35,067 bases of DNA from Alphaproteobacteria bacterium (GTDB lineage Bacteria > Pseudomonadota > Alphaproteobacteria > DSM-16000 > Inquilinaceae). How positions within the stretch are numbered: position 1 is the first letter of the stretch; every line of letters begins with the position of its first letter. The stretch spans positions 1 through 35,067 of the forward strand of contig JAAAOG010000163.1 of the NCBI GenBank assembly GCA_009909005.1, written 5' to 3'. Of this stretch, positions 992 through 4,429 are shown piece by piece. The notes under the pieces are model-generated. The model worked only from the letters and a program-made list of their open reading frames with translations, did no database searches and was not told the DNA's origin. Both the position numbers and the translations under genes were made by a program.

Positions 992-1375
992 ATGACTGCG
1001 GCTCTGCCTATGCCGTCATTCCCCGATCGGCCGGCACTCTCCTGGGAGCCGACGCGGGAGGCCGGCCTCGCCGGTCTCCAGGCCTTTCATGTACCGATGC
1101 TGTCGCCCTGGATCCGTCATCGGCTGGTGTGCGAGGAGGAGGTTGTGCGTGCCACCCTCGACCGCCATGGCTTTCGCGGGGCCGAGAAGTTCATCCAGGA
1201 AGTCGTCTGGCCGACCTATTGGAATGGCTGGCTGGAGATGCGGCCGGGGGTGTGGCGGCGCTATGGCGAGGCTGTCGAGAGCCTGACCGGTCACCTGGAC
1301 CGTGATCCAGCGCTGCGCGGGCGTTTCCAGGACGCCGCCCATGGTCGGACCGGGATCCCGTGCTTCGGAATATAA
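992..1375 (+). pseudogene. Truncated photolyase/cryptochrome-like FAD-binding domain gene (5' fragment)
   Basis: The frame opens at an ATG preceded by AGGGG and runs 127 codons at normal local GC. Segments such as SWEPTREAGLAGLQAF, LSPWIRHRLV, EKFIQEVVWPTYWNGWLEMR and GRTGIPCF match, from family knowledge, the FAD-binding domain of DNA photolyase-like proteins, where GRTGIPCF is normally followed by DAW and the flavin-binding helices. Here the reading changes after F125 and stops two codons later, exactly where the AT-rich island begins (about 1367). A second defect is visible: LQAF runs directly into VPMLSPWIRHRLV, so roughly 20 residues usually lying between them appear missing. Unlikely to fold or bind FAD. 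Family assignment is from recall of motifs, without alignment. Confidence 0.7.
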
Positions 1376-1384
1376 AACAAAATC

Positions 1385-1413
1385 TTTACAATTTTAGAGG
1401 CTTGCTCTATCTT
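1385..1413 (+). promoter_or_regulatory. Candidate sigma70-type promoter of the NACHT gene
   Basis: TTTACA at 1385-1390 and TATCTT at 1408-1413 are separated by 17 nt and lie about 40 nt upstream of the NACHT start. Both elements are inside the AT-rich island, so the gene appears to bring its own promoter. AT-richness raises the chance of coincidental matches. Confidence 0.45.
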
Positions 1414-1454
1414 TGAGGTTGTGAAAAGCCTAGACTAATGAAGGGTATCTTTGA

Positions 1455-3686
1455 ATGGCTGGAGAAAGAGATTGGGAAGCTCTCGAAAAACGAGTGCGTA
1501 CGTTGTCTTCATTACTATGGAATTGCGCATCTAATCCAGAAGAGATAAACGGCGTGCGGTGTGATGCCGTTTTGAAACCCAAATCTGATTATTGGGTGTT
1601 AATCGAGGTTTCTTTAAGTAAAAAACTGCAGAAACTGCGAGAAGATGTAGCAAAATTTGGCGCCGTGAGGCCTTGGCTGAACTCACAAAATATTTATGCA
1701 GAATGCTATTTTATTTGCGCTGAAGAACCTACTGAAAGCGTCGTAAAAACTGGAAAAGGTCACAATGTTAATGTGCTTTCTCTTGCCCAATTTGAGCGGA
1801 TGTTCCTCGACTTTGACGAGTACTTTTTTCTGCGTGCCGAACGTAGTTTTGGTTCTGCCGTGGATCCGATGTCAGGAAGAAAAGACAAATCTCCATATGT
1901 AAACGTGACGTACGAAGACATACACCGGAATAAAAAGTATGACATCACTGATTTACAAGAAATGCTGTTGAGAGGGTCAAACATTATTTTAATTGGAAAT
2001 TATGGAACCGGCAAAAGCCGCTGCATACAAGAACTATTTACTAGAATTGGATCCGAGGCCATATCAAAGAAAGTTTATCCTATTGCTATAAATTTGAGAG
2101 AAAATTGGGGATTGCGGCGTCGCTCAGAAGTTGTTCGGCGACATTTTGAAGAACTTGGTGTTTCCGGTAAGTCAGACGCTGTGCTAAAAATTTTAGATTT
2201 GGGGGGCGTTCGACTTCTATTAGACGGATTTGATGAAATAGCGTCACAAGCTTGGAGCGATGATCCGGGTCGTCTAAAAACTATACGAGCAGACTCGCTT
2301 TCCGGAATAAAAGACCTTATTTCAACAGTAAAAAAAGGCATATTTATTGCTGGTCGCGAGCATTATTTCAATTCGGATCAAGAGATGTTTGACTGTCTGG
2401 GGTTGTCGCCTTCAGATACGGTTTTAATACGTTGTGCGGAAGAATTTTCGGAGGAACAGATGAAAAATTTCTTGGAAAATAAATCACCAGAATTTCATAT
2501 TCCTAAATGGCTACCAAAAAGGCCGTTAGTAATAAAAATGCTCTTGAGTTTTAATATTCAAGAGCTTCAGGCAATTTTAAGCGAGAGAGGTGGTGAGCAT
2601 AAATTTTGGTACCATTTGCTTGATGGAATATGTGAGCGTGAAGCTCGCATACATCCATCTCTGGTCCAAGATACGATTAGGTCGGTACTCTTGGAGATTG
2701 CTCATATTAGTCGTGAAAAACCTGGAAATGTTGGCCCAATAAGTTTAACCGAAATCAATGATGCATTTGAGAGGGTTGTTGAGTTGCGGCCACGTGACGA
2801 AGCATCTGCAATGCTGCAGAGACTTCCTATGCTTGGGAGAACCGATCCTGGTTCTAGCGATAGGCAATTTTTGGATACTTATATTTTAGATGGACTTCGA
2901 GCGACAGCCCTGATAGAGTCAATTTCACTTGAGAAGTCAACGGAATTGATTAACAAAAATTGGCGCAATCCACTAGAATCGTTTGGGCGTGCCTTGTTGG
3001 CGGACCATGTAGCAAGCCCCGGAAATGCAGCGTCATATTTGCGACTTTGCAAAAAATCTTCAGAAAAAATCAATCAGATTTTGCCTGGGGACATAGTATC
3101 GGCCATGTTGTCAACTGAAGGTGGGCAGCTTGATTTCGAAAATCTAGTAATAAAAGATTCGCATCTGGGTGAGATATTTTTAGCGGATAGTAATGCAAAG
3201 AACATAATATTTGAAGATTGTATAGTCGAGCAACTCCATATCGGACCAGTCCCGCCGCAGAACATCGTGTTTAGGCGTTGCATAATTCGATCCGTACATG
3301 GCCTCTCTACGTCTGATCCGCGACCAACATATATACAAGATTCACAAATTGAAAGTTATGATGCATTAAGTAACGTGGCAAAAATTCGTGAGGCTAAATT
3401 AAGCCGAGAACAAACAATCTTCTGCGCCATAATTCAGAAAACCTTCTTTCAACCGGGTGGCGGTAGGAAAGAGGAGGCGCTCTTGAGAGGGCTTGGGGAC
3501 ACAGCCGATAAGCGAGCTGCTCGTTCAATACTTCAGATGTTGATGAAGGAGGGTATTCTTGATAAGTTTCCAGGGGACTCTGGGGTAGTGTATATTCCAA
3601 TTAGAAAGCATACGCAAAGAATGGCAAAGATTTTAAGTGCACTGCATCACAGTACAGATCCCCTATGGGAGGAGATAAAACATTAA
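1455..3686 (+). CDS. Nuclease-like / NACHT (STAND) NTPase, probable antiphage NLR-like protein
   Basis: The protein has 743 residues. N-terminal part (about 1-135): a predicted PD-(D/E)xK-like fold, with D37 in CDAVLK, E51-V-S53 in VLIEVS and the SKKLQKLREDVAKF helix seen in REase-like defence domains; the usual lysine is serine here. NACHT part (about 150-420): Walker A GNYGTGKS at 181-188, the NACHT-type Walker B RLLLDGFDE at 253-261, and a sensor-like GREHYF at 300-305. Residues about 550-615 form a short beta-rich, pentapeptide-like stretch (FENLVIKDSHL, IIFEDCIVEQ). The C-terminus (about 640-743) looks like a winged helix. Bacterial NACHT proteins of this build are known antiphage NLR-like sensors; the trigger and target here are unknown. 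Base composition and codon use are strikingly AT-rich compared with both flanks, a strong sign of transfer. No partner gene, toxin or integrase lies beside it. Confidence 0.85.
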   Translation: MAGERDWEALEKRVRTLSSLLWNCASNPEEINGVRCDAVLKPKSDYWVLIEVSLSKKLQKLREDVAKFGAVRPWLNSQNIYAECYFICAEEPTESVVKTGKGHNVNVLSLAQFERMFLDFDEYFFLRAERSFGSAVDPMSGRKDKSPYVNVTYEDIHRNKKYDITDLQEMLLRGSNIILIGNYGTGKSRCIQELFTRIGSEAISKKVYPIAINLRENWGLRRRSEVVRRHFEELGVSGKSDAVLKILDLGGVRLLLDGFDEIASQAWSDDPGRLKTIRADSLSGIKDLISTVKKGIFIAGREHYFNSDQEMFDCLGLSPSDTVLIRCAEEFSEEQMKNFLENKSPEFHIPKWLPKRPLVIKMLLSFNIQELQAILSERGGEHKFWYHLLDGICEREARIHPSLVQDTIRSVLLEIAHISREKPGNVGPISLTEINDAFERVVELRPRDEASAMLQRLPMLGRTDPGSSDRQFLDTYILDGLRATALIESISLEKSTELINKNWRNPLESFGRALLADHVASPGNAASYLRLCKKSSEKINQILPGDIVSAMLSTEGGQLDFENLVIKDSHLGEIFLADSNAKNIIFEDCIVEQLHIGPVPPQNIVFRRCIIRSVHGLSTSDPRPTYIQDSQIESYDALSNVAKIREAKLSREQTIFCAIIQKTFFQPGGGRKEEALLRGLGDTADKRAARSILQMLMKEGILDKFPGDSGVVYIPIRKHTQRMAKILSALHHSTDPLWEEIKH

Positions 3687-3709
3687 TAATTTTGTATAAT
3701 GGGCGCTCG

Positions 3710-4429
3710 ATGGTGATGACCGAGGACGAACGGCGTCTGACCGCCTATCACGAAGCCGGTCATGCCATTGTCGGTCTGCGGGTTCCGGGTAACGATCCGC
3801 TGCACAAGGTGACGATCATCCCGCGCGGCCGCGCCCTCGGGGTCACCATCAACCTGCCCGAGCGCGACCGGTATGCCATGCGCAAGAGCGATATCCTGGC
3901 CCGCCTGGCCATGATGTTCGGCGGCCGCGTGGCCGAGGAGCTGATCTTCGGCCGTGACCACGTCACCACCGGGGCCGGCAACGACATCCAGCAGGCCACC
4001 GAGCTCGCCCGACGCATGGTGACCGAATGGGGCATGAGCGATCTGCTGGGCCGGCTGCGCTACGCCGGAAGCGACGAGCAGGTCTTCCTTGGACGCTCGA
4101 TCGGGCGCACGCAGAACGTCTCCGAGGAAACCGCAAAGCTGATCGATGAAGAGGTGCGCCGGATCATTGCGGACGCTGAGAATACCGCCCGCGCCACGCT
4201 GACGACCGACCTGCAGGGCCTGCATGCGGTGGCCGAGGGTCTTCTGTCATACGAAACACTCAGCGGCGAGGAGGTCCGGGGCCTGCTGGCCGGCGATCCC
4301 GTCAGCCGTCCGGATGTGCCGGAAGACGATCGCCCGCCCGGGGGCCGTGTCAGTCCGCCGGCCGAGCCCCGGAAGCCCGTCAGGCCGCGTCCGGTCGTCG
4401 GCCCGCCGCAGGTGCAGCCGCAGGCATAA
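3710..4429 (+). pseudogene. ftsH: FtsH 3' remnant: M41 zinc-metalloprotease domain without AAA+ or membrane part
   Basis: Homology to alphaproteobacterial FtsH begins abruptly at RSMVMTEDERRLTAYHEAGH and runs to a normal C-terminus with a proline-rich tail. The zinc site HEAGH is at residues 14-18 counted from the ATG at 3710, and the third ligand is D92 in GAGNDIQQATELARR. The roughly 400 residues expected upstream (two membrane helices, AAA+ ATPase) are absent; the AT-rich NACHT gene stands there instead. The frame stays open back to an ATG at 3665, overlapping the end of the NACHT gene by 22 bp, so a stand-alone protease domain of 239-254 residues could in theory be made. A TATAAT hexamer at 3695-3700 sits just before ATG 3710. 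Most likely a remnant; FtsH without its unfoldase should be inactive on folded proteins. An intact ftsH presumably exists elsewhere. Confidence 0.85.

What the first reader, a model, noticed from the sequence alone, without database searches (positions are those of the whole stretch)
1368..3703. Single-gene AT-rich island encoding a nuclease-like NACHT protein, a candidate bacterial NLR antiphage system
The gene has the NACHT Walker B LLLDGFDE, a clear Walker A, a nuclease-like N-terminus, and a composition utterly unlike both flanks. Bacterial NACHT proteins are known antiphage sensors, but this REase-NACHT-beta-repeat-winged-helix arrangement with an E-V-S nuclease site may be an uncharacterised clade. 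It has its own likely promoter and no partner gene.
Basis: partly seen in the sequence, partly recalled or inferred. Interest (0 to 1): 0.8.

Follow-up and report, generated by a model that had tools for sequence, protein, structure and literature searches.

The report
Mobile nuclease-armed bacterial immune receptor
A foreign-looking, stand-alone gene encodes a bacterial relative of animal immune receptors with a predicted DNA-cutting domain attached, probably a phage-triggered defence; the general kind is known, but this version seems to be an unnamed family scattered across bacteria and sometimes carried by phages.

Summary
Window 1369-3700 is an AT-rich island (41% GC against 67% outside) with one 743-aa gene at 1455-3686. 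Structure prediction gives a PD-(D/E)XK nuclease fold (residues 1-118), an NLR-like NACHT module (to about 555), a short pentapeptide-like beta-solenoid and a likely C-terminal winged helix. Over 66 homologues the nuclease residues E11, D37, E51, K60 and the Walker motifs are strongly conserved; the lysine is probably K60, so "E-V-S" is not the whole site. Homologues are rare (about 1% of sampled genomes), scattered over eight phyla, present in a phage, a plasmid and 12 viral contigs, without a recurrent partner, and AT-richer than both flanks in 54 of 55 loci (other long genes 9 of 113). Best reading: a stand-alone, mobile bNACHT-type NLR that fires a DNase on infection, working like bNACHT25/32. 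No family library held here matches it convincingly, but its place in the published bNACHT clades could not be tested. Both flanking genes are cut at the island edges. Antiphage activity is inferred, not shown.

The parts
1369..3700 (.). AT-rich island, 2.33 kb, one gene
   Evidence: maximum-likelihood GC segmentation, 0.41 against 0.67
1455..3686 (+). PD-(D/E)XK-NACHT protein, 743 aa
   Evidence: ORF; full-length homologues
1455..1808 (+). nuclease domain, residues 1-118; conserved E11 (1485-1487), D37 (1563-1565), E51 (1605-1607), K60 (1632-1634)
   Evidence: AF2 pLDDT 94.5 for residues 1-134; PDB matches; conservation over 66 homologues
1905..2444 (+). NACHT nucleotide-binding domain, residues 151-330; Walker A 1995-2018, Walker B 2214-2237
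   Evidence: conservation; Pfam NACHT in 40 of 46 family members at E<=0.01; fold match to NLRs
2445..3119 (+). HD1, winged-helix and HD2-like helical region, residues 331-555
   Evidence: VIA-align to NLRC4 over model residues 114-564; sub-domain names and borders by analogy
3120..3362 (+). short pentapeptide-like beta-solenoid, residues 556-636
   Evidence: DSSP; PDB pentapeptide protein 6fls E=1.3e-4 at profile positions 552-608
3372..3683 (+). C-terminal predicted winged helix-turn-helix, residues 640-743
   Evidence: helix/strand order in the model; 37-39% mean pairwise identity within clades
992..1366 (+). left flank: 5' part of a photolyase/cryptochrome-like gene (name recalled; no Pfam match), cut at the island edge
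   Evidence: 43% identity to a protein from a 441-aa open frame in another genome, match ends at 1366
3702..4429 (+). right flank: 3' part of a second ftsH (M41 peptidase part only), cut at the island edge
   Evidence: M41 E=7.5e-72; DNA match to the intact ftsH starts at 3702; the FtsH matches listed from other genomes start at its residue 2, in frames mostly of about 650 aa

Best explanation
It is a stand-alone, horizontally mobile bacterial NLR-type (bNACHT-type STAND) defence protein. At rest the NACHT module is probably ADP-bound and closed. A phage-derived or infection-altered molecule is sensed by the variable C-terminal half (HD2, beta-solenoid, perhaps the winged helix). ATP exchange then lets NACHT modules assemble into an oligomer, which brings the N-terminal PD-(D/E)XK domains together, and these cut DNA (phage, host or both), ending the infection, probably by abortive infection. 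Shown here by computation: domain folds (predicted), conserved active sites, presence on mobile elements, lack of a partner. Inferred from characterised bNACHT and NLR proteins: nucleotide switching, oligomerisation, DNA as target, phage as trigger.
For: NLR-like fold over residues 114-564 (NLRC4 8fvu_B Z 18.3, rmsd 5.1, 379 aligned; the first 24 rows are NLRs). Nuclease fold of residues 1-134: AF1548 Z 12.9, a Pyrococcus repair endonuclease (2vld, NucS by recall) 11.2, Cdn1 10.8, Can2 10.6, FokI 8.7. E11 kept in 58 of 59 rows with a residue there, D37 62 of 62, E51 58 of 65, K60 64 of 66; Walker A residues 66 of 66. Purifying selection: dN/dS about 0.03-0.16 in the 6 of 8 close pairs with a measurable dS. 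The most variable part is residues 476-636 (22-27% mean identity against 37-43% elsewhere), as expected of a sensor. On mobile elements: phage Haddon, a plasmid, 12 distinct full-length IMG/VR contigs, some near-copies; phrog_18297, a phage protein family of unknown function, matches 6 of 7 homologues (best 6.1e-6, over the NACHT part of the window protein). The closest homologue (51%) lies beside a HerA-type gene (PADLOC E=2.8e-252), others beside a type I restriction subunit or a type III methylase. bNACHT25/32, also PD-(D/E)XK-NACHT, degrade DNA on infection and need the nuclease (PMC12169576, passages seen).
Against: No experiment. No PADLOC match for this protein and no convincing NCBIfam match. 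The three flanking proteins scanned are not defence genes; the rest of the window was not scanned for them. Foldseek alone finds no nuclease match at E<=0.001 (best 1.4e-3). Seven of 65 homologues lack E51 (6 M, 1 A), so some members may be catalytically dead. Five of ten neighbours scanned one by one, picked by hand among the larger ones, had no PADLOC match at 1e-10.
Confidence: 0.74

Rival explanations
1. A phage or plasmid fitness gene that acts on competing mobile DNA (superinfection exclusion or plasmid interference) rather than a host defence gene; the machinery is the same but serves the mobile element, and chromosomal copies are relics or recruits. Not exclusive of the best explanation.
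For: Homologue in phage Haddon between the early genes and the endolysin, a phage that plaques on PA14 (PMC11841053, passages); 12 full-length IMG/VR contigs; P. fluorescens L050 groups with the nearly identical viral-contig copies L013/L015.
Against: In genomes no phage neighbour recurs: in the 25 of 86 phrogs families listed for 144 neighbours the commonest are a helicase (5) and a methylase (3); the closest homologue lies next to a defence-type gene.
Confidence: 0.35
2. A STAND-type transcription regulator: the C-terminal winged helix binds DNA and the N-terminal fold is a degenerate, non-cutting nuclease.
For: The predicted C-terminal winged helix is fairly conserved (37-39% identity); GntR match in one homologue; E51 is lost in a subclade.
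Against: E11, D37, E51, K60 are kept in nearly all others; patchy distribution with no recurrent neighbour that could be a target.
Confidence: 0.07
3. The island is an assembly chimera or contamination in the draft genome and the gene does not belong to this organism.
For: Both flanking genes are truncated exactly at the island edges; gene GC 25 points below the flanks; draft of 230 contigs with 3% estimated contamination.
Against: Low GC against flanks is a family-wide property (54 of 55 loci), so it is no sign of an artefact by itself; the ORF is intact. No reads were at hand.
Confidence: 0.12

Closest known systems
bNACHT25/bNACHT32 (bNACHT clade 6; PMC12169576, passages)
   Same: N-terminal PD-(D/E)XK DNase and central NACHT; expected infection-triggered DNA degradation
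   Different: they are reported to have an NCH1 C-terminal helical domain; here the model shows a beta-solenoid and a likely winged helix. Direct sequence comparison was not possible
AVAST/Avs proteins (Avs4, PDB 8dgf; Avs5)
   Same: N-terminal effector and STAND NTPase core; Avs4 aligns over 449 residues at Z 10.2, but rmsd 10.8
   Different: 743 aa against about 1,550 for Avs4; no long C-terminal helical-repeat region in the model; NCBIfam Avs4 only 9.2 bits against a cut-off of 1500
Animal NLRs NLRC4/NAIP/NLRP3/NOD2
   Same: NACHT plus helical and winged-helix region aligned over about residues 114-564
   Different: nuclease instead of CARD/PYD, solenoid and winged helix instead of LRR; about 10-16% identity
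DS-8 (DefensePredictor, PMC13092281, passages)
   Same: NACHT antiphage protein; weak NCBIfam match in 9 of 46 members (best 1.1e-4), none for the window protein at 0.01
   Different: metallophosphatase effector, not a nuclease

Membership tests
bacterial NACHT (bNACHT-type STAND) proteins | NACHT domain with Walker A and D-G-[FY]-D-E Walker B | tested here: met
   66 of 66 homologues; Pfam NACHT 40 of 46 at E<=0.01; NLR fold; the window protein alone is below the Pfam cut-off
bacterial NACHT (bNACHT-type STAND) proteins | tripartite layout: N-terminal effector, NACHT, C-terminal sensor | tested here: met
   predicted models and domain conservation; the sensor role is inferred from variability
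bacterial NACHT (bNACHT-type STAND) proteins | protects against phage | not testable with these tools
   needs a plaque assay
PD-(D/E)XK nuclease superfamily | alpha-beta-beta-beta-alpha-beta core | tested here: met
   DSSP of the predicted model; VIA-align Z 8-13 to proteins of this superfamily (membership of the hits recalled); Foldseek weaker
PD-(D/E)XK nuclease superfamily | conserved acidic pair and catalytic lysine | tested here: met
   D37, E51, K60 and E11; the lysine is 9 residues after E51, not in the canonical E-x-K position; geometry not measured
bNACHT clade 6 (bNACHT25/32) | NCH1 C-terminal helical domain | tested here: inconclusive
   no NCH family among the 14 Pfam families matched by 46 members; only the NCH2 model was verified to be in the library
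bNACHT clade 6 (bNACHT25/32) | place in the bNACHT phylogeny | not testable with these tools
   reference sequences not at hand; the founding paper is not held
AVAST (Avs) | match to an Avs family model | tested here: not met
   Avs4 9.2 bits against 1500; no PADLOC match for this protein
AVAST (Avs) | long C-terminal helical-repeat (TPR-like) sensor (recalled) | tested here: not met
   predicted C-terminus is beta-strands and a likely winged helix, 743 aa in all

The most novel reading that the evidence does not exclude
A distinct family of bacterial NLRs in which the pentapeptide-like beta-solenoid, a fold that mimics DNA in known gyrase inhibitors (recalled), acts as a pseudo-substrate that holds the nuclease or the C-terminal winged helix off DNA, so the receptor senses phage-made changes in DNA or DNA-bound proteins rather than a phage structural protein; phages spread it as a weapon against rival phages.
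Probability: 0.12. Interest if true: 0.75.

Novelty: new variant of a known kind. Interest (0 to 1): 0.5.

Why it matters
It would add a compact, single-gene nuclease-NLR family, carried by at least one plaque-forming phage and found in records of eight bacterial phyla, with a core whose best PDB matches are animal inflammasome proteins and an unusual sensor half. The small size makes activation, oligomerisation and trigger identity directly testable. The strong, family-wide AT-richness against very different host backgrounds also marks it as a clean example of a repeatedly transferred defence-type gene.

Tried and rejected
Housekeeping gene: rejected; found in 0 of 16 other genomes of the order, in 5 full-length copies including the window's own among 385 of the class (a sixth match covered NACHT only) and in 4 including its own of 398 of the phylum at E<=1e-30; the samples overlap in part.

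Two-gene system: rejected; among 63 loci no neighbour family within 3 kb occurs in more than 3 (408 neighbour proteins called by my own simple script, near-copies L015 and L033 left out). A same-strand neighbour within 60 nt lies upstream in 9 of 59 and downstream in 5 of 62.

Canonical E-x-K site at E-V-S: rejected; position 53 is T or S in 64 of 66, and the conserved lysine is K60.

Target-site repeats: the longest shared direct repeat of the edges is 8 bp of AT-rich sequence, not taken as meaningful. Promoter: no better than chance. Sequence search of the nuclease domain against PDB: nothing up to E=10. E. coli genomes at DNA level with the Erwinia homologue: no match. Viral structure library: listed matches look like generic AAA-type ATPases. 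A narrow viral scan with the Haddon protein gave no relative. The neighbour scans listed only 25 of 237 (PADLOC), 25 of 167 (Pfam) and 25 of 86 (phrogs) families, so no exact share of defence or phage neighbours can be given. The ten neighbours were picked by hand among the larger of the 144, two of them from one locus. The structure alignment A4 holds the window and 45 loci picked by hand for spread.

Full report
What is there. The window is the whole of contig C182 of a 4.23-Mb draft genome. A single ORF of 743 aa lies at 1455-3686 in an island placed by GC segmentation at 1369-3700 (0.41 against 0.67).

What the protein is. Family models see it poorly: Pfam NACHT E=0.029, below cut-off; PADLOC nothing; NCBIfam nothing convincing; no PDB sequence match. 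Homologues settle it: of 46 aligned members 40 match Pfam NACHT at E<=0.01, best 2.7e-9. Weak matches to report: PADLOC mad8 in 3 of 7 members (best 4.2e-4), NCBIfam DS-8 in 9 of 46 (best 1.1e-4), and phrog_18297, a phage family of unknown function, in 6 of 7 (best 6.1e-6, on the window protein at residues 168-277). An AlphaFold2 model from the 46 sequences has mean pLDDT 88.6 and pTM 0.74. The structure search returns animal NLRs first (Foldseek), with NLRC4 8fvu_B at Z 18.3, rmsd 5.1, 379 residues over model 114-564 (VIA-align). The N-terminal 134 residues folded alone (pLDDT 94.5) have the order helix, three strands, helix, strand, helix, strand. VIA-align gives AF1548 Z 12.9 (rmsd 2.8, 109 aligned), a Pyrococcus repair endonuclease (NucS by recall) 11.2, Cdn1 10.8, Can2 10.6, the BspD6I nickase 10.5, FokI 8.7. 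Foldseek by itself found matches only at E of 1.4e-3 or worse. The profile of the 46 members finds pentapeptide-repeat proteins at positions 552-608 (6fls, E=1.3e-4). Residues 640-743 read as a winged helix by helix and strand order.

Active sites. Of 81 loci examined, 66 members of at least 695 aa were aligned; 11 shorter ones and 4 duplicates or cut ones were left out. E11 is kept in 58 of 59 rows that have a residue there, D37 in 62 of 62, E51 in 58 of 65 (6 M, 1 A), K60 in 64 of 66; Walker A G-x-G-K-S and D257, G258, D260, E261 in 66 of 66. Start codons were chosen by my script, which may explain N-terminal gaps. So the nuclease reads D-x13-E-x8-K with the lysine at the start of the following helix. 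The six rows with M at position 51 form one branch of the second clade and may be inactive nucleases.

Selection and the sensor. Mean pairwise identity within the clade that holds the window is 0.37 for the nuclease, 0.43 for the nucleotide-binding domain, 0.41 for HD1/WHD, 0.27 for HD2, 0.26 for the solenoid and 0.39 for the C-terminal winged helix; the second clade shows the same pattern. dN/dS is about 0.03-0.16 in the 6 of 8 close pairs with a measurable dS. A conserved effector and switch with a variable stretch at 476-636 fits a receptor.

Distribution. None of the 16 other genomes of the order has it. In 385 genomes of the class 5 have a full-length copy including the window's own, and in 398 of the phylum 4 including its own. 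One of 72,556 plasmid records (Erwinia persicina, 37.5%) and one of 50,697 phage records (Pseudomonas phage Haddon, 27.6%) hold a match. IMG/VR gives 10 full-length contigs and 2 more, some near-copies of each other. The GTDB scan kept 80 loci (of 92 relatives); L029-L088 are family members, 53 of these 60 with a frame of at least 695 aa, the other 7 shorter. By record title the rows of the tree include Pseudomonadota, Bacteroidota, Bacillota, Chlorobiota, Cyanobacteriota, Actinomycetota, Planctomycetota and Spirochaetota. In a quick tree of 66 rows the window pairs with a MAG titled only 'bacterium' (L029, 51% identity) inside a set of Bacteroidota, Bacillota, Chlorobiota and Planctomycetota (SH-aLRT 96); no named alphaproteobacterium is in that set. 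A patchy tree suggests transfer; it does not by itself prove it.

Composition. In 55 loci with at least 1 kb of flank on both sides (plus-strand, full-length members, the window's included) the gene is below both flanks in GC in 54 and by 10 points or more against their mean in 35; of 113 other long genes in the same loci 9 are below both flanks and none by 10 points. The AT-rich island is therefore a family trait.

Neighbourhood. There is no constant partner. Among 144 neighbours of 37 loci the lists, cut at 25 families, include DEAD helicases (5), ResIII (4), HSDR_N (2), type III methylases (3), PtuA (2) beside ordinary metabolic genes. The 51% homologue L029 lies beside a HerA-type ATPase (E=2.8e-252) followed by a protein that looks like SIR2 (by eye). 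L041 lies 15 nt downstream of a type I restriction subunit, and L046 near a type III methylase. Five of ten hand-picked large neighbours had no defence match. In phage Haddon the gene stands between the early genes and the endolysin region; its authors report essentially no similarity of Haddon to sequenced phages (PMC11841053, passages).

The insertion site. Both flanking genes are broken at the edges. On the left, a photolyase-like gene (named from recall) matches a protein from a 441-aa open frame only up to base 1366. On the right, a second ftsH (61% to the intact one on contig C116) begins at base 3702 without its membrane and AAA parts; 153 of 190 genomes of the class have an FtsH match at E<=1e-60, and the matches listed begin at residue 2 of the fragment in frames mostly of about 650 aa. 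No clear candidate for the missing halves was seen elsewhere in the draft genome. Insertion with deletion, or an assembly join, would both give this; reads would decide.

Mechanism and comparison. bNACHT25/32 combine a PD-(D/E)XK DNase with NACHT, degrade DNA on infection and need the nuclease (PMC12169576, passages). The present family should work alike, with a different C-terminus. P4-like satellites are known to carry STAND/NLR defence (PMC9122126, passages). Searches of the paper library (listings and the passages named) showed no paper describing this architecture, but the founding bNACHT paper is not held, so prior description cannot be excluded.

Verdict. A real bacterial NLR family, known in kind but apparently unnamed; a new variant of a known kind, antiphage role likely but unproven.

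Noticed in passing
window 992-1366 and 3702-4429: Both genes flanking the island are truncated exactly at its edges: a photolyase-like gene on the left and a second ftsH on the right.
   Followed up: partly
L066-L071: A branch of the family has methionine in place of the catalytic glutamate E51 (in L068 the methionine is also the start my script chose), so its nuclease may be inactive or repurposed.
   Followed up: no
L003 11983-14283 (phage Haddon, CDS0030): A plaque-forming Pseudomonas phage carries a full-length homologue annotated as hypothetical protein.
   Followed up: partly
L013 1526-7555: Genes near the homologue on this viral contig look like other defence cargo (an AAA ATPase and a PIN-like protein, by eye only).
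   Followed up: no
L089, L090, L091, L094: Chlorobiaceae hold short proteins (364-371 aa) that match only residues 8-263 of this protein, the nuclease and part of NACHT.
   Followed up: no
L041 6806-9973: A type I restriction subunit ends 15 nt upstream of a family member, which suggests joint expression in that locus.
   Followed up: no
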